From the NCBI GenBank assembly GCA_902538255.1, contig CACBEJ010000003.1:1-64000 (forward strand): a DNA stretch of 64,000 bases, given 5' to 3'. Below the pieces are notes generated by a model. It did no database searches, was not told the DNA's origin, and saw only the letters and a list, made by a program, of their open reading frames with translations. Position 1 is the first letter of the stretch, and every line of letters starts with the position of its first letter. Origin of the DNA: an uncultured Pelagibacteraceae bacterium (GTDB taxonomy: Bacteria > Pseudomonadota > Alphaproteobacteria > Pelagibacterales > Pelagibacteraceae). Shown here piece after piece: positions 19,200 through 31,179 of the stretch. The position numbers and the translations under genes were made by a program.

Positions 19200-19274
19200 G
19201 GGCCGTTAGCTCAATAGTAGAGTACTGCATTGACATTGCAGGGGTAGTTGGAGCGTAACCAACACGGCCCACCA
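19200..19274 (+). tRNA. tRNA-Val(GAC) with non-canonical D/T loops
   Basis: Acceptor GGGCCGT/ACGGCCC, anticodon arm CTGCA-TTGACAT-TGCAG, T stem GTTGG/CCAAC, encoded CCA; D loop AATAGTA, T loop AGCGTAA. Confidence 0.85.
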
Positions 19275-19333
19275 TGATTTAATTATCTTTAATTGATAAC
19301 TAACAAAAAATGATATAATTAAACTAAGTTTAA

Positions 19334-19373
19334 GGGCCTGTAGCTCAGTTGGTTAGAGCAGTTCACTCATAAT
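19334..19373 (+). repeat. Truncated 5' fragment (about 40 nt) of the tRNA(CAT) at 31103
   Basis: gggcctgtagctcagttggttagagcagttcactcataat; one mismatch to 31103-31142; sequence diverges right after the anticodon loop. Confidence 0.93.
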
Positions 19374-19499
19374 TTCTTGTTAAAAAAATTTGCTTAAAAA
19401 ATCATTAATTAACAGTACTAATTTAAACATTTAAAAATGAAAAATTTTTCAACAACTATTTACCAACGAATTCATTTTAAAATTCTGTTAATTTGAAAT

Positions 19500-19913
19500 T
19501 TAAGAACTATTTTTGATTAATGATTTTGCAATTGTTTCTGCTAAAATAACAGGAACTGCGTTTCCAACTTGATGGTATGTTTCCATCTGAGTACCTAAAA
19601 AAACAAAATCGTCAGGAAATGATTGAAGTCTTGCGGCCTCTCTTACCGACAATGTTCTTGTTTCGGTAGGGTGAATATACATATATCCATCCATACCTAT
19701 ATGAGCAATTACAGTCCATGAAGGTTTATTATTAACTAATCTCTTTAACCGATCATGAAAGATGTCTTCTCTAAAGGGCAGAATATTCCTAATCTTTTTT
19801 GGTAGATCCATATATTTACTACCTTGCCTCATGTGTTTGAATACTCTCTTTGCTCTTTCATTTGTCATTCGACAAATATTATTTTTTACAGTTCCATTAG
19901 TTTTAGCTCTCAT
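19500..19913 (-). CDS. C5-cytosine DNA methyltransferase, C-terminal part (TRD region and motifs IX-X); beta chain of a split enzyme or frameshifted half
   Basis: TLSVREAARLQSFPDDFVFLG (motif IX) and YHQVGNAVPVILAETIA (motif X); overlaps the upstream ORF by 11 nt. Confidence 0.88.
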   Translation of the reverse strand: MRAKTNGTVKNNICRMTNERAKRVFKHMRQGSKYMDLPKKIRNILPFREDIFHDRLKRLVNNKPSWTVIAHIGMDGYMYIHPTETRTLSVREAARLQSFPDDFVFLGTQMETYHQVGNAVPVILAETIAKSLIKNSS

Positions 19914-20661
19914 CTTTTTTTTGATAATTATTTAAGTTATTTGATTTCGAATACTCACACTCATCAATTCTCCAATTATCAGTAATCTTAGGTAAATCTG
20001 AAATTGCATCTTTCACAGTTACATATTTTTGATTTTTTGAAAAAAGATTGTCTTCAGAAAAATATTTTATTTCTGGAATATTATATTTAAATTTCTTAAT
20101 TTTCGTTCCTATCAAAATCATTCTTTTTCTTGTTTGAGGCACACCATAGTCAGCAGCATTAAAAATTAAGTTCTTTTCATTAAGAATTTTATACCCTAAT
20201 TTTTCAATCATATTTTTTGTTTGAGTAAAAATAGAACCATTATATTTTGTCATAAAATTTGGAACATTTTCCATTACGAAATGATCAGGTTGGAAGTATT
20301 CAATGTAATTAAAGTAGTTTTTAAATAAAAAATTTCTATCATCATCAAATAAAGTGAAATTAGAATTTTTTTTGCTTTTGACAGATTTGATTTTTGCGTG
20401 ACCTATTGTTGAAAAAGTAGGACAAGGTGGTCCACCTATAATTAAATGTATTTTTTTATTTCTAATTTTTTCTTTAAATTTGTTAGGTTTAATCTTTGAA
20501 ATATCAGAGTTAATAGAAACACAATCAGGAAAGTTTAATTTATGAGTATCAATACAAGCCTTTGATACATCAATTGCACCCACACATCTATAACCAGCTC
20601 TTTCAAAACCTAGAGATAAACCTCCAGCACCACAAAATAAATCTATAAAATTTTTACCCAC
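19903..20661 (-). CDS. C5-cytosine DNA methyltransferase, N-terminal part (motifs I-VIII); alpha chain of a split enzyme or frameshifted half
   Basis: FIDLFCGAGGLSLGFERAGY (I), GGPPCPTFSTIG (IV), MENVPNF (VI), YGVPQTRKRMILIG (VIII). Confidence 0.9.
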   Translation of the reverse strand: MGKNFIDLFCGAGGLSLGFERAGYRCVGAIDVSKACIDTHKLNFPDCVSINSDISKIKPNKFKEKIRNKKIHLIIGGPPCPTFSTIGHAKIKSVKSKKNSNFTLFDDDRNFLFKNYFNYIEYFQPDHFVMENVPNFMTKYNGSIFTQTKNMIEKLGYKILNEKNLIFNAADYGVPQTRKRMILIGTKIKKFKYNIPEIKYFSEDNLFSKNQKYVTVKDAISDLPKITDNWRIDECEYSKSNNLNNYQKKDES

Positions 20662-21805
20662 AATATTTTTTAATTACTTTTGCTAATTTATAAGCCATTA
20701 AAGGAGGAACAGCATTACCTACTTGCTTATATTGTTCGGTTCTTGATCCTAGAAAAATAAAATTATCTTGGAAGGATTGTATTCTTGCAGCTTCTCTAAC
20801 AGTAAAAGTTCTCTCTTGTTTATAATCAGGATGTATAAAAAGATTTCCATCTTTGTAAAGATGAGAAACAACTGTTTTACCAGGTAAGTTATATTTTTGA
20901 ACTGTATACCTGTTGTGGAAATGCTCAGGATCATGATGAATTAAATCAGGCCTTACTTTTTTTAGGTCTCTTAGTGCCCAATTTTTTTTGCTTAAATATT
21001 TATATCTCTGTCTGTCTTTTTCATTATGTTTTCTAGCAACATGATTATAGAGAACTTTACTATTTTTTATTTTTTTTAAATAATTATTCTTGGACGAATT
21101 TTCAAATTTTAATTTTTCTTCACCCTCACCAGGTTTTAAAGAAGGTAAATCAGCGATAGCATCTTTGACTGTAAATATTTTTTTTTCTTTACTTTTGTTA
21201 ATTAATTCATCATAAATTTTTGGAACTATAAATGAATATTTTTTTAATACTCCTATAACAAATACCCTTTTTCTTACTTGAGGCACTCCGTATTCGGAAG
21301 TATCAAATACCATTTGTGATGTATTGTCTAAAGTTACATATCCAAGTTTCTTTGATAAATTAAGAATATCGTCAAAAATTTTTGTTCCATTTGGTTTTGC
21401 TGAAAGTATACCTCTTACATTTTCAAAAACATAAAATTTTGGTTTTATAATTTTTAAACATTCGAAAAAATCTTTATAAAAATAATTTCTTTTATCTTTA
21501 CGCATTGAGTATTTGTCCTGAGCCCTACCAACACTTGAAAAACTTTGACAAGGTAGACCAGCCACTACACCTTCTATAGGTGTACCATTCATCTTGCTTT
21601 TAAGAATTTTTTTAAATTTTTTTGTTGTTATATCTTCGTTAATTACATGTGTGTTTTTAAACCTATTTTTGAAAGTTTCACATGACCAAAAATTAAAATC
21701 TGCAGCAAGATATGACTTATATCCTGATTTCTCAAAACCTTCTGCAAAACCTCCACAGCCAGAGAATAGATCTATTATGTATTTGTCTTTATTTTTTTGA
21801 TACAT
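20654..21805 (-). CDS. C5-cytosine DNA methyltransferase, full length
   Basis: IIDLFSGCGGFAEGFEKSGY, AGLPCQSFSSVGRAQ, FENVRGI, YGVPQVRKRVFVIG, TFTVREAARIQSFQDNFIFLG, YKQVGNAVPPLMAYKLA. Confidence 0.95.
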   Translation of the reverse strand: MYQKNKDKYIIDLFSGCGGFAEGFEKSGYKSYLAADFNFWSCETFKNRFKNTHVINEDITTKKFKKILKSKMNGTPIEGVVAGLPCQSFSSVGRAQDKYSMRKDKRNYFYKDFFECLKIIKPKFYVFENVRGILSAKPNGTKIFDDILNLSKKLGYVTLDNTSQMVFDTSEYGVPQVRKRVFVIGVLKKYSFIVPKIYDELINKSKEKKIFTVKDAIADLPSLKPGEGEEKLKFENSSKNNYLKKIKNSKVLYNHVARKHNEKDRQRYKYLSKKNWALRDLKKVRPDLIHHDPEHFHNRYTVQKYNLPGKTVVSHLYKDGNLFIHPDYKQERTFTVREAARIQSFQDNFIFLGSRTEQYKQVGNAVPPLMAYKLAKVIKKYCG

Positions 21806-21812
21806 TTTTTAA

Positions 21813-22226
21813 ATGGATGAAACCTTTATAACATTATCTATTAACAAATTTTTAAGTGAAAACAATTACGAAGTTATTCAATGTATTCCACCAGGAGGAC
21901 AGGGTGGAATTTATTATTCATTAAAAAACAATATTATTTACCCAGATATAATATGTTTAAAAGATAAAATTCTATATATAGGTGAAAATAAAACACTCTT
22001 TAACGAATCGGATGAAAAAAAACTGATTGAATTAAGCAATGAAGAGAGCTTATTTGAAAAATCTCAAAAAATTGTTGATAACTTTTTAAAATCTAAAAAT
22101 AAACCACACGAAAAAATCGACGATATTAAGTTCTTTTTAGGCTTTTCATCTAGCTCAAAAAAGCAATCAAATGTTCATATAAACATCCTAGTAGATAATA
22201 ATGGTAAAGTTTTATTAAAAAATTAA
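21813..22226 (+). CDS. Small putative PD-(D/E)XK nuclease-fold protein
   Basis: 137 aa; YPDIICLKDKILYIGENKT fits PD-x(n)-ExK; starts 7 nt from the divergent methyltransferase. Confidence 0.6.
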   Translation: MDETFITLSINKFLSENNYEVIQCIPPGGQGGIYYSLKNNIIYPDIICLKDKILYIGENKTLFNESDEKKLIELSNEESLFEKSQKIVDNFLKSKNKPHEKIDDIKFFLGFSSSSKKQSNVHINILVDNNGKVLLKN

Positions 22227-23369
22227 AACTCCATCTTTAAAAATCATCATATCACAAAAATATCCATATATTCTCAAAGGCTTATTTTTTGTATAGGTGC
22301 AGCCGTATTGTAAATGATGAGAAATTTTAAATTGACTTTGATAATTTTCAAGCTCAGAACTTTTAAAAGGACAGTTTACATCGTAATATTTTTGATATCC
22401 TTTTGGTCCCATAACTTTTTTAATTTGAGCATCTTCACTATTTAACGGCATAAAAACTAAATTTATTTTTCTTTCCTCAACATTTCTTCCAATTCTACAG
22501 AATGCATAGTCAAATGATCCGAGCATACCAACATAAGGATCAGCAGCATGAGCAAATAGACGACTCGATTTTGTATCTGGCTGTAGTATCAATGTTTTTT
22601 CTCTAGATGTGATTCTTGAGGGCAAATTTTCTACAGTTTTATTTATCCAGTTGATATTTAGGTCTTGATAACCTTCTAAATAGTTTTTTAATTGAGAAGT
22701 ATTTATTAACTTACAGGTAGGAAGGTCTTCTATTTTGTAAATTTTTCCTTCAGTGTCATTTTTTTGTTTTTCAAATTTTATTTTCCAAGATTGACAGTCG
22801 AAAACTTTATAATCATGATTTTCAAAATTTTGATCATGATTTATGTAATCTTTTATTAAATCAAACATTTCTAACATATTTGGATGTAAAAGTTTTGGTA
22901 AGCCAGGAAAACCATCCTCATCTAAAAGAATATTGTTTGAATTTGAGTAATGAAAAAAAACAGATGGAATTTTATTAATTGAAGAAATTTTGTTTAACAA
23001 ATCATAATGTTTTGGATTAAATTTGTATGTGTATCCATCAATTTTTTTTGGACATATATAAATTGAGCAAACATCACTTTCAGCTGCTGCAATTATTCTA
23101 GGAATTCTTTGCTCGATATGTTGAGAAGCAGGTTTAGATTTTGTTATTTCAATACATAATATCGGTCTCTCAATATTTTCATTTTTTTTACTAATAATTA
23201 AATCAGGTTTATCTAATCTTAAAATATTTTTAAGTTTTTCTGGAAGATTAAGAAATTTAGGGTCTCCTGGATTTGGAATTTTTTCAAAAGTAAAGTTAAA
23301 ATCACTTGAAATACCTTTTTTAAACCAATTAAAATTAAGTTCGTTTTCTGTTCTTACAACTATTTCCAT
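22215..23369 (-). CDS. Hypothetical protein, possible restriction-endonuclease-like protein
   Basis: 384 aa; KPDLIISKKNENIERPILCIEITKSKPASQHIEQRIPRI resembles a degenerate PD-ExT/K core; in the Z1/DUF4420 gene string. Confidence 0.5.
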   Translation of the reverse strand: MEIVVRTENELNFNWFKKGISSDFNFTFEKIPNPGDPKFLNLPEKLKNILRLDKPDLIISKKNENIERPILCIEITKSKPASQHIEQRIPRIIAAAESDVCSIYICPKKIDGYTYKFNPKHYDLLNKISSINKIPSVFFHYSNSNNILLDEDGFPGLPKLLHPNMLEMFDLIKDYINHDQNFENHDYKVFDCQSWKIKFEKQKNDTEGKIYKIEDLPTCKLINTSQLKNYLEGYQDLNINWINKTVENLPSRITSREKTLILQPDTKSSRLFAHAADPYVGMLGSFDYAFCRIGRNVEERKINLVFMPLNSEDAQIKKVMGPKGYQKYYDVNCPFKSSELENYQSQFKISHHLQYGCTYTKNKPLRIYGYFCDMMIFKDGVLIF

Positions 23370-23378
23370 AATTTTTTA

Positions 23379-24365
23379 TTATTCTATGAAATTTTCATCA
23401 GAAACAAATTTTTTTATCCTATTAATATCAATTGAAAATGATACCTCATTTATTCCCTCAGCTAAATCTTCTTTTAATATTGTTGGAAATTTATTTGTTA
23501 ATTTATAAAATAGTAAAGAATTAGCTACATATTTAGTTTCATAATTTTTTTTATGTATTTCAAAATACCCATATGCACTTAGTTTTTTTTCAAAGGAAAT
23601 TTTTAAATTATTGTTGTCATTAAAAATTTTTTTTATATCATCTATAATTTCAACAAGTGTTTTTCCAGATAAATTCTGTTCTATCTCAGCACAACCAAGG
23701 TATAAATTTGAAAAAAATTTATAATTAAGCTGATCTAAATTATTTATTTTAATTTTATTTTTTCTTTTTGAATAAGTTTTAATTTCTAATAAAAATTTTG
23801 GAAATTTAAAATCATGCAATCCACCTTCAGGTCCTTCCCAATAATTCAAAATATTTGACGAATTAATATTTTTTGAAATAGCTTTATTAAAAAAAGTAAG
23901 CTCTCCAAATAATCCAATTTCTTCCTCTTTAGTTAAACCTTCGTATTTTTCATCTTCAAAACATTTTCTCCAATTTATTAATAAATTTGAAATAATATCA
24001 AAACATAATTTTTGATTATCTATGTCATAGATAGAAGTAATTATTTTTTCTAAAAGATTTTCATATGCGTCCAAAAAAGAACTATTTTTAAGATAAATTG
24101 ATAAAATTAATAAATTTTTATCGTCTTCATCATTTTCAAAACTTACCTTTATCCCTTTGGTTTCTTTAAATTCAAAATTTGATTTATTAACCAATGTTTT
24201 GTTGAAAATAAAGTTCACTGATTTGAATTTATTTTCATAAATGACTGATGCGCTAATAGGAGTTTTGCAATCTGTAAATATACTTCTTGAATATTTTCCA
24301 GGATTATTTATTTCTGAAGATATTTTTTTCCAAGCATCAATAATTTTATTAAAATCAAATTTCAT
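23379..24365 (-). CDS. DUF4420-like putative PD-(D/E)XK family protein
   Basis: EEEIGLFGELTFFNKAI...YWEGPEGGLHDFKFPKFLLEIKTYSKRKNKI; D-x(n)-EIK core; start overlaps the Z1 stop by 11 nt. Confidence 0.82.
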   Translation of the reverse strand: MKFDFNKIIDAWKKISSEINNPGKYSRSIFTDCKTPISASVIYENKFKSVNFIFNKTLVNKSNFEFKETKGIKVSFENDEDDKNLLILSIYLKNSSFLDAYENLLEKIITSIYDIDNQKLCFDIISNLLINWRKCFEDEKYEGLTKEEEIGLFGELTFFNKAISKNINSSNILNYWEGPEGGLHDFKFPKFLLEIKTYSKRKNKIKINNLDQLNYKFFSNLYLGCAEIEQNLSGKTLVEIIDDIKKIFNDNNNLKISFEKKLSAYGYFEIHKKNYETKYVANSLLFYKLTNKFPTILKEDLAEGINEVSFSIDINRIKKFVSDENFIE

Positions 24366-27300
24366 TTGATAATTCGTGTTCTGCGTAAACTGAATTCACT
24401 CTGTACTCTACAGCAGCTTTATCTCCCATTCTTGAGTATGGAAAACTAATTTGAAATCCCATTAATGGGTATTTTGTTAAGTGATCTTTATCAATTTTAT
24501 TAATATCGTTATGTCCTTTTACAACATGCTTTTTACAATTTTTTTCACAATCGCTTTTACAATTTTTGTAACCTTTGAATTTTTTAAAGGAAGATAAATT
24601 TTTTATTCCTAGAATAGGATATAAATTTAATAATCCTCTTTTTTCACTTCTATGATATCTTGCGAAACCTCTTTTGGCAGAAGTTATTGTTTGCTCCTCT
24701 GTCTGTGTATCATGTGTTTTTGTGAAATTTTCCAAACTATCTTTGTATGCTTTTAGCTCATCGCCTTCTAAACCTAGCAACTCATCTGTTGGCTGGGTAA
24801 TTACTTTAAGACTTATTTTTTTTTTATTTCTTTGATTTGACGGTGTTCTTAATATTAATTCGACATTATGTTTGTCTAATATATTTAAATTTTGTCCAGA
24901 CGAACCATTACCATGTAAACATACAGTCCAATTCGTAAGTTCATTGTATTTATTAAGATTTTCAATGTATCTTGCAAATTGAGATGTTCCCAAACTTCTC
25001 TGTTCCTCAAATCGTTTATACGTGTTCAGATAATTTATTATTTTCTCAGGATCTACATTTTTCCATAAAAAAATATTTTTCCATCTATGTAAATCATTTT
25101 CAAATTCTCCCGATATTACAGGATCACTTATTGACTCCAGAAGTTTTTCAGAAGATATAAAATTAGATTTAATTACTTCATCATCATTTACAAATGTTAT
25201 TATTTCCTCAACTTCTTGAGAAAAAGAAGTTTGTTCTACTCTTGAATGACGCATTTTAGTTTTTGATGTAATAATCAAATTTGGATTAGTTCTAACTTTA
25301 AGTCCAAATTCACTAGGAGTTGATCCTTGGGCGGCCATTATTCTAAAAGCATTTCTTAACTCTTCTGTAGCCACAGAAATATGAAAAAACCATCTAATAA
25401 CATTATCTGTTGTATATAATCTACATAAATCTTGATAGCCCATACGATAGCCAAACCATCTACCCATTTGCATTAAGGTATCATACATTGGCATTTTTGC
25501 AGATCTTAAGAAATAACTAATAGACAATCCTTCAAGAGTTAAACCTCGAGAAAGTTTGTCACCACCAATAATTATTGTATGTAATCCGAAACCATTGTCA
25601 CTTTTAAACCTTTTATACTCTAGAGTATCGTTTTTTCTTCCGTTTAAAACTTTAATATTTTGACAAATTTGATTTATAACAAAATCTAAACTTCTTTTAT
25701 CATTAATTAATTCTAACCAAGAAGGATATTTATTTTCGTTTGTATCTTTATAAATATAAAACTTTTCTTCCCAAATTTTTTTAAAAGTAGAAATTGTTTC
25801 TTCGTATTTTTCATTATCTTTATTAATTCTATTTCTAAGTAAAAAAAGATAATCGTTTACTTGTTTGTATACAATATCTTGAACATCTACAAACTTAGTT
25901 ACATGAATAAGCATTGACTTTGCATCCTCTACATAGCCTCTAAAATTTCTACAAGCAGAAGTTAAGATAAATGAAATTATTGCTTCTTTAAGAGAGGGTG
26001 GAAGATCTATTTCTGGATCATTTTTATTATTATATTCGGGCTGATGGTAACGATCATGACGAGGGGGCATCCAACCCTCACTACAATCTGGGTCATCTGG
26101 GAAAAGTGAACTGTCTTCAACTATTTGAAAAAAATGATTATCATCTATCTCTCTGTCTTGAACTTGTTCACCGTCTACAATTTCAGTATTAAATATTTTT
26201 TCTAAACCAACATGGTTAGAAGGTATTGGTAAGTCGATAATATAATCTTTTGGAAATAAATCTAATCCTTCTTCATTAGTTTTAGCTTGATTATGTATAA
26301 ATATATTTGCAAAAGGAGTTGCTGTATACCCTATGTAAACACGTTTATCGAAAATATTTAACAAAGTTCTAATTAATCGATTAATTGTTTTTGGATCGTA
26401 ATCGAGATCGAAGTTTCCTTCCTCATTAACTAATTGTTCTCCAGTATCAACAGAACCATTATCAACCTCATCATCAATAATTAAAATTGGTTTATCTTTT
26501 ATGAACGGTGGAAATGTAGAGAAGTGACCTCTTACTTTGAAAGGTTTTTGTTCTACAGTTACACCATGAACTTTAGGAGAGCTTAAGTAATACCCAATAA
26601 GTTTTTCAAGTACTGATTTATTTTTTTTCACCACAAATATTGCAGGATCGTCTGTATGAAAATTTAAGTTATCAGCAACGTTCTTTTTGAAATCTCCATT
26701 TAATTTACTATTAGTGCCACAACTAATAATTGGGAGTTTATAATTCATTCTTCTTGCTGCGAGAGGACCTTGATATATTTTAGTCCCTAAAGAACTTGCT
26801 TGAGTATCATAGGCTAGTAAACCTTCGTCCACTCTTATTTGAGTTTGTTGTCTAAGATTGTTATTTAAACCAGAAAGAACAATAATTTTTTTATAACCTG
26901 CATCGACAGCTTTATTTAGGAAACCAATAAAATTTGAAGTTTTTCCTGATTGCACACTACCTACAACCAAACCTCTAGAGTCCCAAAAGCCATCTCTATT
27001 CGGATCCTCTATACTCTTCATCATTAAGTCTGTGGTTTTATCCATAGCAGCTACAGCATCGGGAGAATATTGAAGGTCATTTTTAATATATTCTCTGTAT
27101 GTTTCCCAATAAGGTCTATCTTTTGTTGAATCATACCAATCTACATGATCACTCTTTCCTTTTATAATTGCGTGAGTAGAACTTTTAACAGTAAAATTTT
27201 CTAATAGTTGTAATATGAGTTTATCTTTGAATTCATAGTCTTTAGGTTGTTTTAAAAAATGTATAGCTTCTTCTACTACGAGTGATATTTTTTTCTTTGA

Positions 27301-27384
27301 TAAATCATTAGGTGTCACGACTTCTATTTGAGAAACACACACATTATAAAGTTTATCAAAAATTGAACTTTTCATGTTACTCAT
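24355..27384 (-). CDS. Z1 domain-containing P-loop ATPase
   Basis: GLVVGSVQSGKTSNFIGFLNKAVDAGYKKIIVLSGLNNNLRQQT (Walker A), PILIIDDEVDNGSVDT (Walker B), YIGYTATPFANIFI, GGDKLSRGLTLEGLSISYFLRSAKMPMYDTLMQMGRWFGYRMGYQDLCRLYTT. Confidence 0.93.
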   Translation of the reverse strand: MSNMKSSIFDKLYNVCVSQIEVVTPNDLSKKKISLVVEEAIHFLKQPKDYEFKDKLILQLLENFTVKSSTHAIIKGKSDHVDWYDSTKDRPYWETYREYIKNDLQYSPDAVAAMDKTTDLMMKSIEDPNRDGFWDSRGLVVGSVQSGKTSNFIGFLNKAVDAGYKKIIVLSGLNNNLRQQTQIRVDEGLLAYDTQASSLGTKIYQGPLAARRMNYKLPIISCGTNSKLNGDFKKNVADNLNFHTDDPAIFVVKKNKSVLEKLIGYYLSSPKVHGVTVEQKPFKVRGHFSTFPPFIKDKPILIIDDEVDNGSVDTGEQLVNEEGNFDLDYDPKTINRLIRTLLNIFDKRVYIGYTATPFANIFIHNQAKTNEEGLDLFPKDYIIDLPIPSNHVGLEKIFNTEIVDGEQVQDREIDDNHFFQIVEDSSLFPDDPDCSEGWMPPRHDRYHQPEYNNKNDPEIDLPPSLKEAIISFILTSACRNFRGYVEDAKSMLIHVTKFVDVQDIVYKQVNDYLFLLRNRINKDNEKYEETISTFKKIWEEKFYIYKDTNENKYPSWLELINDKRSLDFVINQICQNIKVLNGRKNDTLEYKRFKSDNGFGLHTIIIGGDKLSRGLTLEGLSISYFLRSAKMPMYDTLMQMGRWFGYRMGYQDLCRLYTTDNVIRWFFHISVATEELRNAFRIMAAQGSTPSEFGLKVRTNPNLIITSKTKMRHSRVEQTSFSQEVEEIITFVNDDEVIKSNFISSEKLLESISDPVISGEFENDLHRWKNIFLWKNVDPEKIINYLNTYKRFEEQRSLGTSQFARYIENLNKYNELTNWTVCLHGNGSSGQNLNILDKHNVELILRTPSNQRNKKKISLKVITQPTDELLGLEGDELKAYKDSLENFTKTHDTQTEEQTITSAKRGFARYHRSEKRGLLNLYPILGIKNLSSFKKFKGYKNCKSDCEKNCKKHVVKGHNDINKIDKDHLTKYPLMGFQISFPYSRMGDKAAVEYRVNSVYAEHELSNEI

Positions 27385-27410
27385 ATTAAAAAACTTAGTA
27401 TATTTTTAAT

Positions 27411-27959
27411 ATGAATTCAATTTCTTCAAAAGTTAGTAAAGTGATCAATATTATAGAAACTAAAGATTTATCCAAAAAAGAATTAATTAATTATTTTAAT
27501 AATATCAACAATTATCCATCTATATCTGAGAATGAAAGAGAAAGATTGATTGAAGTTGTTGAAAAAAAAATGAGAGTAAATTTTCCAAATACTGCAAAAA
27601 AAATATTGGGAGGTAAAAGTTCAAAAGCAAGAGAACTATTAGATAATTTTTTTAGCAAACTAATTGTTGATTTTGATTGGTCTAAAAATAAAGTTGGGAC
27701 AAGGGTTAAAGCTGGCGGTAGCATGATAAGTGGTAAAGAATATGTTTGTTGGTATATTTCCTATAAAAATGAAAAAGGCTACTCGACCGGATTACATTAT
27801 AGACAATTAACTCCCAAAACTGATCCCTACTTAGAAATTGATTTTAGAAAAGTGGGTAAACATTTTGAAAATGAAAAGAAGCTTAATAAATTTCCTGTAG
27901 AACTTAAAGATGATGCTTTTTCTCTTTTTAAAGAATATTTAATTCAAATAATAAATTAA
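27411..27959 (+). CDS. Hypothetical protein divergently linked to the Z1 operon
   Basis: 182 aa; 26-nt gap from the divergent Z1 start; no family recognised. Confidence 0.65.
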   Translation: MNSISSKVSKVINIIETKDLSKKELINYFNNINNYPSISENERERLIEVVEKKMRVNFPNTAKKILGGKSSKARELLDNFFSKLIVDFDWSKNKVGTRVKAGGSMISGKEYVCWYISYKNEKGYSTGLHYRQLTPKTDPYLEIDFRKVGKHFENEKKLNKFPVELKDDAFSLFKEYLIQIIN

Positions 27960-28019
27960 AATAATAATTTAAAATAACAATTTAAAAACATATTTAAGTC
28001 TAAATATTAACAACAAATC

Positions 28020-28123
28020 ATGCATTAATTCGAAATGCATTGGATTTCAATCCTTTTCTATCGTATTCCGCTTTTTTTAATTTCTCCCTTGTTGCGTAAT
28101 TCGATCAAAAAGAAGAGGATTGA
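28020..28123 (+). other. Candidate structured RNA/leader with two inverted repeats
   Basis: ATGCATT(28020-28026)/AATGCAT(28034-28040), 7-nt loop; TCAATCCTTTTCT(28047-28059)/AGAAGAGGATTGA(28111-28123), one G-U type mismatch. Confidence 0.35.
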
Positions 28124-28186
28124 GACCATAACCAATTACAAACTTTTAACTCTCAAAAAATCAATTAACAATAGGAGTTCCAATAT

Positions 28187-28372
28187 ATGGAAATAGGCCG
28201 TGTCTGTAAGTACTGTCACGTGAGTGCTTACGTTGCGTATGATAACTGCGACCCAGTTTATAAACAAACTTTCAAATTCGAGATATTACCAGGTGAACAC
28301 AACAGTTTAGTCTGGGATAAAATCATAAAAATATTTAAGAAAAATGGATACAAAGTGGAGCTCAAATCATGA
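28187..28372 (+). CDS. Small hypothetical protein
   Basis: 61 aa; aggag upstream of ATG; stop/start overlap with the next ORF. Confidence 0.55.
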   Translation: MEIGRVCKYCHVSAYVAYDNCDPVYKQTFKFEILPGEHNSLVWDKIIKIFKKNGYKVELKS

Positions 28373-28932
28373 AAAGAGTTTTGCTCATTTTTTTATTACA
28401 TCTATCTCTTTTTTTTATTGTATTCGCCTATCAAGCCCAAGCAGATGAAAGAAATTGGGAAATATCTAAATATGAGGGTCAAAGTTATGCCCTTGTATCT
28501 GGAGAGATTCAAAGAACAGACAAATTTTCATTTGTTTTATCTCCAGAGGGTCAGTGCCAAGAAGTAAGTTCAATGTTTTCTTTTTTTACATGGAATAACC
28601 CTGGTGATTTTGATCAATTAATAGGAAGAAAAGTTCCAATTAAATTAAATAATATTGAAACAACTGCAGAGGTATTAACGACTTTTCCTTATAAGGAAGG
28701 TTTAAAAGTAGTTTTTTATTTTGGTACATTTCCACTCAAAGAATATATCTATACGATGTATAAATTTTATGAAGAAGAGGGTATTTATCAGATTCAAATA
28801 GTTGATGGACTGAATTTTGTTGCTTCAAAGTATTTTGATATTACTGAAAATAATTGGAAATTTGATAATTTGATTACATCTATTAACGATGCTTTTGAAA
28901 TCTGTAAAAATATTAAAGATTTGAAAATTTAA
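28369..28932 (+). CDS. Hypothetical secreted/periplasmic protein
   Basis: N-terminal signal peptide MKRVLLIFLLHLSLFFIVFAYQAQADE. Confidence 0.7.
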   Translation: MKRVLLIFLLHLSLFFIVFAYQAQADERNWEISKYEGQSYALVSGEIQRTDKFSFVLSPEGQCQEVSSMFSFFTWNNPGDFDQLIGRKVPIKLNNIETTAEVLTTFPYKEGLKVVFYFGTFPLKEYIYTMYKFYEEEGIYQIQIVDGLNFVASKYFDITENNWKFDNLITSINDAFEICKNIKDLKI

Positions 28933-28935
28933 TTT

Positions 28936-29274
28936 TTACAAATCCTCGTTATGCCAGGTAAAAAGATCAGCTTCAAAAGGAATATTTCTAAATTTTAATA
29001 AAGCCTTATATTTCTCAAGTCTGTCCTCTTTTTTAGCACTTTTTAAGTATGTAAGGATTTGATCATAGGTCAAACCTTTCAAATTATCTTTTTTCACATC
29101 TACATACTCCTCATATTCCATACCTGCTATTGCATAGCCTTTATTTGGATCTATGTGTTCTGCATAACTAATGGTGTCTTCAGTTTCTTTAAGGATATCG
29201 TACCAGTGAGCAACTTGATTTTTATTATCAAAAAGATAATCTTTTCTGTAATCAAACAGTTCTAACTGCTGCAT
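28936..29274 (-). CDS. Hypothetical protein
   Basis: 112 aa ORF MQQLELFDYRKDYLFDNKNQVAHWYDILKE; soluble, no family recognised. Confidence 0.6.
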   Translation of the reverse strand: MQQLELFDYRKDYLFDNKNQVAHWYDILKETEDTISYAEHIDPNKGYAIAGMEYEEYVDVKKDNLKGLTYDQILTYLKSAKKEDRLEKYKALLKFRNIPFEADLFTWHNEDL

Positions 29275-29421
29275 ATTTTTGAAGTATTTAAATTAAGAAA
29301 ATTAACTAACAATTAATAATATAATTTTTAATTATGTCATAAGTATGATAAAATTATTTAGTCCTGATTTAGAAAATAACTCTACTTGCTAGGACTTAAA
29401 ATAAAACGCTAAAGGAGAAAC

Positions 29422-29595
29422 ATGAAAATAAAAATACAATCAATAAGAGACTTTTTTAAATCAAAAGAAAAAAAAGGTTTAAAACCTATATTTTTTGAGA
29501 GCATTGGAGATCAAAATACTTCAAGAGATGAAAGGCTTAAGAATCTGATAAAAATTCTAGAAAAAAATGGATTTAAAATTAAAAATAAAAAATAA
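29422..29595 (+). CDS. Small ORF (57 aa) absent from the ORF track
   Basis: MKIKIQSIRDFFKSKEKKGLKPIFFESIGDQNTSRDERLKNLIKILEKNGFKIKNKK; aaaggag 5-6 nt upstream of ATG. Confidence 0.5.
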   Translation: MKIKIQSIRDFFKSKEKKGLKPIFFESIGDQNTSRDERLKNLIKILEKNGFKIKNKK

Positions 29596-29668
29596 TTATT
29601 TAAATTGAAATTTATTTTTTAATTATTATATTAATTTGGTTGGTTAATAAGACTATTTATTAACGTTT

Positions 29669-29729
29669 AGGGAAGAAAAAATATGATTGTTATTTTAATA
29701 GATCTTAAACGGTGTATTTTTTCTTCCCT
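29669..29729. repeat. Inverted repeat, perfect 14-bp arms
   Basis: AGGGAAGAAAAAAT (29669-29682) and ATTTTTTCTTCCCT (29716-29729), 33-nt spacer. Confidence 0.85.
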
Positions 29730-29790
29730 TATAAATGTTTAAATTTTTTAAAGTTTTATCCAATCAACATAAAATAAATGTAACAATATA

Positions 29791-29863
29791 AAACCGTTAG
29801 GTTTGATATTGGATTCGAAGATTTATGCTTAGGATTATTGTATCCTTATTAAACTTACGGTTT
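29791..29863 (+). promoter_or_regulatory. Candidate structured 5' leader of the 29876 ORF
   Basis: Outer arms AAACCGTTAGGTTT (29791-29804)/AAACTTACGGTTT (29851-29863); inner hairpin AGGAT (29831-29835)/ATCCT (29842-29846). Confidence 0.45.
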
Positions 29864-29875
29864 GAGAAAGGATAA

Positions 29876-30136
29876 ATGAAAAAAAATAAACCTAATTTAA
29901 ATGTTAATGAAAAATTAGTTAAAATGTTTGAGGATCAAATCCCAGAAAATCGTCAACAAGTCTTGAGAGATATTGATAGTATTATGTGCAACATGTTTGA
30001 ATTGCACCCAAACGATTTACCTTGGATAAATCCTAACAAACATGAGGAAAAATGGGAAAATCTTATGAATAATTTAAGATTAATTGTTGGTAAGATAGAA
30101 TACGAAGGTAAGAGAAAAAAAAGGACGGTGCACTAA
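29876..30136 (+). CDS. Hypothetical protein
   Basis: 86 aa, coupled (1-nt overlap) to the downstream nuclease. Confidence 0.65.
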   Translation: MKKNKPNLNVNEKLVKMFEDQIPENRQQVLRDIDSIMCNMFELHPNDLPWINPNKHEEKWENLMNNLRLIVGKIEYEGKRKKRTVH

Positions 30137-30984
30137 TGATTAGTTTAAAACGAAATAGTAAAACTGGAGAATTAGTTAAAGCTACTGGTGTAACCAGTCA
30201 AAAATTTAGAATCTATACTCCTAATCAAAATAAAGATTTTACTTTAAGCAGATCAAGATTTGATGATTTTATGACTTGTGAGAGATGTTTTTATTTAAAG
30301 GTAAATAAAGGCTTTATGTCTCCTTCAACTCCTGGATGGACATTAAATACATTAACTGACACCTTGTTAAAAAAGGAGTTTGATGAATGTAGGGCAAAAC
30401 AAATTCCTCATAGGATTATGACTAAATATAATCTTAGAGATTTGGTTCCATATGCTTCAGAAAAGATCAAGGGTAAAAATGGTAGTGATAAATTATTATT
30501 GGATGAATGGAGGGATTCACTTCATTATGGAATTAAGCATAGATTTAAAGATACCAACATTATTTTGCAAGGAGGCGTGGATGATGTTTGGTTTAATACT
30601 AAATCGAAAGAATTGGTCATAGCTGATTATAAATCTCAGCATAAAAAAGATGAGGTTTCCCAAGATACTTATTTCGATGATCCATACAAAGAAGGGTATC
30701 AAAGACAACTTGATTATTATGCATATATCTTAAAAGGTATGGGTTACAAGGTTTCATCAGATGCTTATTTTTATATATGTAATGCAAAAGAAGTTGATCA
30801 AGGTTTTCATGGCAAGATGTTATTTGATGAAGTTTTAATTCATTACAAAATCAAAACAGATTATCTCGAAGATGAGATTCAAAAAATGATAGATGTGATG
30901 AATTCCTCTGAGATACCAAATTTTCATGAAAGCTGTGAGAATTGTGCTTATGCAAGACAAAGGTCAGTTATTGATAAACTGTAA
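30136..30984 (+). CDS. PD-(D/E)XK superfamily nuclease (RecB/Cas4-like)
   Basis: LSRSRFDDFMTCERCFYL; VIADYKSQHKK (D-x-K core); YQRQLDYYAYIL (QxxxY motif); ESCENCAYARQR. Confidence 0.85.
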   Translation: MISLKRNSKTGELVKATGVTSQKFRIYTPNQNKDFTLSRSRFDDFMTCERCFYLKVNKGFMSPSTPGWTLNTLTDTLLKKEFDECRAKQIPHRIMTKYNLRDLVPYASEKIKGKNGSDKLLLDEWRDSLHYGIKHRFKDTNIILQGGVDDVWFNTKSKELVIADYKSQHKKDEVSQDTYFDDPYKEGYQRQLDYYAYILKGMGYKVSSDAYFYICNAKEVDQGFHGKMLFDEVLIHYKIKTDYLEDEIQKMIDVMNSSEIPNFHESCENCAYARQRSVIDKL

Positions 30985-31102
30985 TCTACTTACCAACCGA
31001 TTTACCAACCAATGCAATTACAAAAGGAAATAAATAGAAACAAAGCAAAAACATTGATGCTTGATAAACTTTTTTTATGGTATAAAACCTAGGTTTATCA
31101 AA

Positions 31103-31179
31103 GGGCCTGTAGCTCAGTTGGTTAGAGCAGTACACTCATAATGTATTGGTCCCAGGTTCGAGTCCTGGCGGGCCCACCA
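31103..31179 (+). tRNA. tRNA with CAT anticodon (elongator Met or lysidine-type Ile2; not resolved)
   Basis: Acceptor GGGCCTG/CGGGCCC, anticodon arm GTACA-CTCATAA-TGTAT, T arm CCAGG-TTCGAGT-CCTGG, encoded CCA. Confidence 0.95.

What the first reader, a model, noticed from the sequence alone, without database searches (positions are those of the whole stretch)
19334..31179. Island inserted at a CAT-anticodon tRNA, leaving a duplicated 5' half instead of the usual 3' end
Seen: 19334-19373 matches the first 40 nt of the intact tRNA (31103-31142) with one mismatch and diverges just after the anticodon loop. All intervening genes are accessory. Known: most tRNA-targeting tyrosine integrases recreate the 3' part of the tRNA. 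Here the 5' half is duplicated, so the crossover lies near the anticodon arm, and the intact tRNA now reads from a 5' half and upstream sequence on the island side. No recombinase ORF is recognisable, so the element is decayed, mobilised in trans, or uses an unrecognised enzyme.
Basis: partly seen in the sequence, partly recalled or inferred. Interest (0 to 1): 0.72.

Follow-up and report, generated by a model that had tools for sequence, protein, structure and literature searches.

The report
Integrase-less SAR11 island splitting a tRNA
In an abundant ocean bacterium, an 11.7-kb block of defence genes sits inside the gene for an adaptor RNA and supplies that gene's new front half and upstream sequence, and blocks with the same ends sit at the same spot in dozens of related genomes, almost none carrying the enzyme needed to move.

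Summary
19334-19373 is the displaced native 5' half of the CAT-anticodon tRNA; 31103-31179 is intact. Relatives without the island keep rpoD - tRNA-Val - about 60 nt - one CAT tRNA - mlaC with no fragment, and the native spacer lies upstream of the fragment.

The main addition is a family. 35 units (29 complete) in Pelagibacteraceae (SAR11) sit in this tRNA with conserved ends: paired TTACCAAC repeats, usually 115/126 nt from the fragment start and 101-125 nt upstream of the tRNA, like arm sites of a lambda-type integrase. Cargo is a mosaic rich in restriction/defence genes. One unit (G447) encodes a lambda-Int-like recombinase plus a terminase small subunit; no other element holds a PF00589 gene, in one complete genome included. 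Best reading: non-autonomous islands moved in trans by an integrase recombining in the anticodon stem-loop. The trans step is inferred.

The window copy looks decayed: a left repeat and the fragment are mutated, a methyltransferase is split, and two units appear fused near 29600. 5'-fragment islands are a known minority (159 of 3919 in Islander): a new variant of a known kind.

The parts
19200..19274 (+). tRNA-Val(gac), left core flank
19275..19333 (+). native spacer and upstream region of the CAT tRNA, now stranded in front of the fragment
   Evidence: similar to the spacer in empty sites L040, L041, L058, L059, L060, L064
19334..19373 (+). displaced native 5' half of the CAT tRNA (one mismatch in the anticodon stem); left junction (attL-like)
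19374..19467 (+). conserved left end of the element; intact arm-like repeat TTACCAAC at 19460-19467, decayed partner TCAACAAC at 19449-19456
   Evidence: same layout 115/126 nt from the fragment start in most family members; close relative G446 has both repeats intact
19500..19913 (-). C-terminal part of a C5 cytosine methyltransferase split into two ORFs
   Evidence: PF00145 E=1.6e-17; a 386-aa single ORF lies at the corresponding place in G446
19903..20661 (-). N-terminal part of the same split methyltransferase
   Evidence: PF00145 E=2.7e-47
20654..21805 (-). second C5 cytosine methyltransferase
   Evidence: PF00145 E=2.2e-60
21813..22226 (+). 137-aa protein, unknown; homologue in the G446 island
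22215..23369 (-). 384-aa protein, perhaps a restriction endonuclease (inference from its neighbours and a PD..EITK motif); no recombinase match
   Evidence: no Pfam, PADLOC or NCBIfam hit; model too poor to classify (pLDDT 47)
23379..24365 (-). MzaD-like PD-(D/E)XK protein (DUF4420)
   Evidence: PF14390 E=1.4e-56; NCBIfam MzaD 136 bits, cutoff 420
24355..27384 (-). MzaC-like Z1-domain ATPase
   Evidence: PF10593 E=9.9e-72; NCBIfam MzaC 683.6 bits, cutoff 1500
27411..27959 (+). 182-aa unknown protein
   Evidence: no convincing family hit
28187..28372 (+). 61-aa small protein, recurrent in other islands
28369..28932 (+). 187-aa unknown protein with a hydrophobic N-terminus, in 5 islands
28936..29274 (-). 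112-aa family hallmark protein (F1), in 14 islands
29422..29595 (+). 57-aa small protein that directly abuts the right arm repeats in several islands
29596..29640 (.). likely fusion point of two units, with a possible decayed left end
   Evidence: G446 ends here into its right repeats; G440 sequence like 29604 onward follows its left repeats; G436 shares the fusion
29876..30136 (+). 86-aa protein (F4); longer homologues look like they carry an N-terminal ribbon-helix-helix domain (inference)
30136..30984 (+). PD-(D/E)XK nuclease, Cas4-like; related nucleases in 12 islands
   Evidence: PF12705 E=1.3e-9
30990..31009 (+). paired arm-like repeats of the right end, TTACCAACCGATTTACCAAC
31061..31086 (+). 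TTGATA - 14 nt - TATAAA, presumed island-supplied tRNA promoter
   Evidence: sequence; similar elements at this place in other right ends; missed by the 16-18-nt scan, as is the native one
31103..31142 (+). island-borne 5' half of the intact tRNA; right junction (attR-like); anticodon loop CTCATAA at 31135-31141
31143..31179 (+). chromosomal 3' half of the tRNA, followed by mlaC

Best explanation
The 19374-31102 block is a non-autonomous integrative island of a SAR11 family whose attachment site holds the 5' half of the CAT-anticodon tRNA (most likely tRNA-Ile2). A tyrosine recombinase acting in trans exchanges strands in the anticodon stem-loop between the tRNA gene and the circular island. 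The native 5' half stays at the left junction as a fragment, and the island supplies the 5' half and upstream region that restore the tRNA at the right junction. Paired TTACCAAC repeats in both ends are the recombinase's arm-type binding sites. Shown: empty sites, duplicated half, conserved paired repeats at near-fixed distances, many members with different cargo at one site, tandem units, one member with a lambda-Int-like recombinase beside its right end, and absence of PF00589 genes from the other members. Inferred: that this recombinase type moves the integrase-less members, that the repeats bind it, and that the island region drives the tRNA. The window copy itself probably no longer moves well.
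For: Empty sites and native spacer. Independent islands with the same ends and different cargo. Exact scan of TTTACCAACTATTTACCAAC over 84,980 species genomes: 35 of 36 stretches are Pelagibacteraceae, nearly all at this tRNA. In 33 genomes the paired motif never appears in the reversed control. Non-circular sample: all 14 genomes found by the tRNA half alone have the paired repeats, 11 in the canonical form and 3 as variants (G262, G265, G269). 8 of 35 fragments but 0 of 25 intact halves carry a mutation. Integrase beside the right end in G447, lambda-Int fold E=1.5e-8, with TerS and DNA polymerase A. Complete genome G409 holds an island but only one PF00589 gene, 0.43 Mb away. Island gene F1 is 88-94% identical in nucleotides between genomes whose rpoD is 79-84%.
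Against: No excised circle, attP or junction read was seen, and no viral contigs record carries the site. Only one integrase-bearing member is known, and its relatives in the sampled genomes are 32-39% identical and not shown to sit at this tRNA. PF00589 may miss a very divergent recombinase: the G447 enzyme scored only 30.6 bits. Homologous recombination could spread islands once present.
Confidence: 0.82

Rival explanations
1. The islands were each inserted by their own integrase, which was later lost; today they are fixed relics that spread only by vertical descent or flank recombination.
For: The window copy is decayed (arm repeat, fragment, split methyltransferase) and no PF00589 gene was found in its genome.
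Against: Most members lack an integrase yet keep near-invariant repeat spacing and an intact core, including compact units of 2-4 kb; shared genes are more alike than rpoD.
Confidence: 0.2
2. A chromosomal Xer-like recombinase of about 317 aa, common in the genus, moves the islands.
For: It is the only PF00589 gene in most island-bearing genomes that have one, complete G409 included.
Against: It was found in 19 of 32 island genomes and in 41 of 101 relatives (all 41 in the window's genus), so it is not clearly enriched, and it was not found in the window's genome (83% complete). Pfam shows a SAM-like and a catalytic domain but no added arm-binding domain, whereas the site looks arm-dependent.
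Confidence: 0.12
3. The fragment is an old tRNA duplication and the genes between gathered by chance.
For: The gap between tRNA-Val and the CAT tRNA also holds accessory genes without a fragment in several relatives.
Against: No empty relative has two copies; ends are conserved across unrelated cargo; the upstream sequence has swapped.
Confidence: 0.02

Closest known systems
tRNA-targeting tyrosine-integrase islands, anticodon-centred, 5'-fragment class (Islander, PMC4383910)
   Same: Displaced collinear 5' fragment upstream of a restored tRNA; dyad-symmetric anticodon stem-loop as the crossover region; tandem arrays.
   Different: Islander requires an integrase gene, which the window island and nearly all family members lack; only 159 of 3919 islands are of the 5' type.
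pTN3-like integrases of Thermococcales (PMC8371274)
   Same: Attachment site is the 5' half of a tRNA, and the restored tRNA is expressed from an element-borne promoter; the review says this is seldom met in bacteria.
   Different: Archaeal; there the tRNA is driven by the integrase promoter. Here no integrase gene is present and the upstream region is a separate conserved right end.
Tycheposons of Prochlorococcus and Methylophilaceae (PMC10872708; original paper not held)
   Same: Cargo islands of streamlined marine bacteria at tRNA genes, a tRNA-Met(cat) among them.
   Different: Described with a tyrosine recombinase (xerD) and often larger; 5'-half duplication and arm-repeat ends are not described in the passages read.
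Phage satellites (PICI, PICMI, VEIME)
   Same: Family member G447.2 has an integrase, terminase small subunit and polymerase, with no capsid gene recognised in 8.8 kb.
   Different: The window island has none of these; no packaging evidence was found.

Membership tests
tRNA-targeting tyrosine-integrase genomic island | restored tRNA plus collinear displaced fragment in the allowed configuration | tested here: met
   5' fragment upstream, same strand
tRNA-targeting tyrosine-integrase genomic island | uninterrupted site in relatives | tested here: met
   13 loci with 50-74 nt between the two tRNAs
tRNA-targeting tyrosine-integrase genomic island | integrase gene within the island | tested here: not met
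   no PF00589 in the window's genome; Pfam and PHROGs negative; present in member G447.2 only
tRNA-targeting tyrosine-integrase genomic island | excision and circular form | not testable with these tools
   no reads available
Tycheposon | tyrosine recombinase within the element | tested here: not met
   absent from the island
Tycheposon | cargo at a tRNA in a streamlined marine bacterium | tested here: met
Phage satellite (PICI-like) | integrase and a packaging gene such as terS in the element | tested here: not met
   not found in the window island; G447.2 has both
Mza defence system | MzaC and MzaD at equivalog level together with the other Mza genes | tested here: not met
   MzaC 683.6 of 1500 bits, MzaD 136 of 420 bits; other Mza proteins not detected; at most Mza-like

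The most novel reading that the evidence does not exclude
SAR11 carries a clade-wide class of obligately integrase-less cargo islands, kept mobile by conserved ends that borrow the integrase of rare terminase-bearing satellites, and each insertion replaces the upstream region and 5' half of what is probably the cell's only AUA-reading tRNA.
Probability: 0.45. Interest if true: 0.77.

Novelty: new variant of a known kind. Interest (0 to 1): 0.64.

Why it matters
[quoted passage not shown] A common attachment site with a recognisable end signature gives a direct handle: islands can be found, counted and tested in single-cell genomes without an integrase gene. It also shows what integrase-based island finders would miss, and it is a bacterial case in which mobile DNA replaces the upstream region of a probably essential tRNA.

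Tried and rejected
Viral contigs: the tRNA-half junction had no match; 118 paired-repeat hits lack any CAT-tRNA half and look like chance; the integrase, F1 and F7 gave no relatives. INPHARED phages: no match for the integrase or either PD-(D/E)XK nuclease. A hidden recombinase in the 384-aa ORF: no family hit, and the model is too poor to decide. The sigma-70 scan found no promoter upstream of either tRNA copy; both have 14-15 nt spacings, outside its 16-18 range. Island base composition does not stand out: GC 0.272 against 0.278. Relatives of the G447 integrase lie at other places (beside lpd in two genomes, near tRNA-Thr in a third), so they did not add a second integrase at this site. Arm conservation in genomes picked by the arm motif is circular; I therefore rely on islands found without it.
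Full report
Observation. ARAGORN places an intact CAT-anticodon tRNA at 31103-31179 and tRNA-Val at 19200-19274. The block 19332-19379 repeats 31101-31148 at 45 of 48 positions, with a single mismatch in the 40 tRNA nucleotides, and diverges after the anticodon loop. The tRNA is probably tRNA-Ile2: the genome has a separate elongator tRNA-Met, and this gene resembles tRNA-Ile(GAT) in its 5' half. ATA is 78 of 241 isoleucine codons in eight nearby core genes, so the gene is probably needed; only one copy was found in the 83%-complete genome.

Empty sites. In 28 relative loci around mlaC the core order is primase, rpoD, tRNA-Val, CAT tRNA, mlaC, vacJ. Thirteen have only 50-74 nt between the two tRNAs and so no room for a fragment. 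The 46 nt upstream of the fragment resemble this native spacer (39/42 with L059, 37/42 with L041, against a best of 34-35 matches in 200 shuffles); not every empty spacer is alike, L043 and L066 being different. The sequence upstream of the intact tRNA instead matches the right ends of other islands. So the left fragment is native and the restored 5' half came with the island.

A family. Genome G019 (L042) has a 4.2-kb island with unrelated cargo but the same ends, and G318 and G129 have two more. Each end holds paired TTACCAAC repeats. The left pair starts 115 and 126 nt from the fragment start in most cases (134 and 145 in a second class); the right pair lies 101-125 nt upstream of the tRNA. 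An exact scan for the left pair over 84,980 species genomes gave 36 stretches, 35 of them Pelagibacteraceae and nearly all at this tRNA. In 33 such genomes the pair occurs 1-4 times, and the reversed control never. Because those genomes were picked by the motif, the independent test is the 14 of 399 genus genomes found by the tRNA half alone: all have paired repeats, 11 canonical and 3 as variants (G262, G265, G269). This 3.5% is a lower bound: the search misses mutated fragments, the window's included. I count 35 left ends and 30 right ends, with 29 complete units of 1.2 to 19.6 kb, some in tandem arrays. A few units lack recognisable repeats at one end.

Cargo. ORF clustering shows a mosaic: C5 methyltransferases in 18 units, a 112-aa protein (F1) in 14, PD-(D/E)XK nucleases in 12, PrsW-like proteases in 10, Z1 ATPases in 8 (Pfam). 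The window cargo is an Mza-like Z1/DUF4420 pair with methyltransferases; both Mza proteins fall well below the equivalog cut-offs. F1 is 88-94% identical in nucleotides between the window and genomes whose rpoD is 79-84% identical, which fits transfer more recent than the species split.

Recombinase. PF00589 finds 21 genes in 19 of 33 genomes, but only one lies in an element: a 474-aa protein in G447, next to the right end and facing away from the tRNA, in the second of two tandem units. Its likely catalytic residues are conserved in an alignment with three relatives; the model has a beta-sheet/helix N-terminal segment and matches lambda integrase best (E=1.5e-8; mean pLDDT 65, so the fold call is modest). 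The unit also has a terminase small subunit and a family-A DNA polymerase and thus looks like a phage satellite. Of the other 20 genes, 19 are an Xer-like protein of about 317 aa elsewhere in the chromosome, not clearly enriched in island genomes. Complete genome G409 has an island at 487 kb and a single PF00589 gene at 920 kb. This favours action in trans but does not prove it.

State of the window copy. One left repeat reads TCAACAAC where the close relative G446 keeps TTACCAAC, the fragment has a mutation in the anticodon stem, and one methyltransferase is split into two ORFs where G446 has one. Near 29600 two units seem to have fused: G446 runs from the same 57-aa gene into its right repeats, G440 has the following sequence just after its left repeats, and G436 shares the fusion. 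Fragments carry mutations in 8 of 35 cases and intact halves in 0 of 25 (Fisher p=0.016), as expected if only the restored gene is under selection.

Mechanism. The most likely course is recombination in the anticodon stem-loop, GTACA-CTCATAA-TGTAT, a dyad around a 7-nt loop as in classical sites. Because 40 nt are identical on both sides the exact crossover cannot be placed. Each integration swaps the tRNA's upstream region for the island's; the island TTGATA-14-TATAAA is a plausible promoter but was not detected by the consensus scan.

Comparison. 5'-fragment islands are 159 of 3919 in Islander (PMC4383910), and pTN3-like archaeal integrases use the 5' half, with the tRNA expressed from the integrase promoter, a situation the review calls seldom met in bacteria (PMC8371274). 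Tycheposons are the nearest marine parallel (PMC10872708), but the original paper was not available, so I cannot exclude that SAR11 examples are already described there. What is new here is the combination: a SAR11-wide family, mostly without integrase, defined by its ends.

Noticed in passing
L227-L245 (e.g. L241:1456-2409): A 317-aa Xer-like tyrosine recombinase is widespread as a single copy in the genus (41 of 101 relatives sampled) in varying neighbourhoods; function unknown.
   Followed up: partly
L300 and L301, between lpd and a priA-like gene: Relatives of the G447 integrase sit downstream of lpd in G036 and G146 with a DNA-polymerase-like ORF, suggesting related satellite-like elements at another site.
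   Followed up: partly
L302:10958-12713: In G211 an integrase of the same type lies on the 5' side of tRNA-Thr(tgt), the same layout as at the CAT tRNA; no fragment was found before the contig end.
   Followed up: partly
L044, L046, L048, L054, L057, L063: The gap between tRNA-Val and the CAT tRNA holds 0.9-4.6 kb of accessory DNA without a tRNA fragment; origin unexplained.
   Followed up: no
L049, L050, L055: ARAGORN finds no tRNA-Val(gac) between rpoD and the CAT tRNA in these relatives; the gene may have moved or been lost.
   Followed up: no
L065 (G010), upstream of mlaC: Distant homologues of the 86-aa protein, the Z1 ATPase and the methyltransferases lie upstream of mlaC, but ARAGORN finds no CAT tRNA in the stretch read.
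   Followed up: no
L218 / G447 (AG-899-N21): The single-cell genome with the integrase-bearing unit is the one PMC12416821 names for phnCDEubiE transfer beside tyrosine recombinases and tRNA genes; no phn gene was recognised in the two units read here.
   Followed up: partly
window 31030-31050 and other right ends: Many right ends hold repeats like GAAACAAATAGAAACAAA between the arm pair and the tRNA, possibly accessory-factor sites.
   Followed up: no
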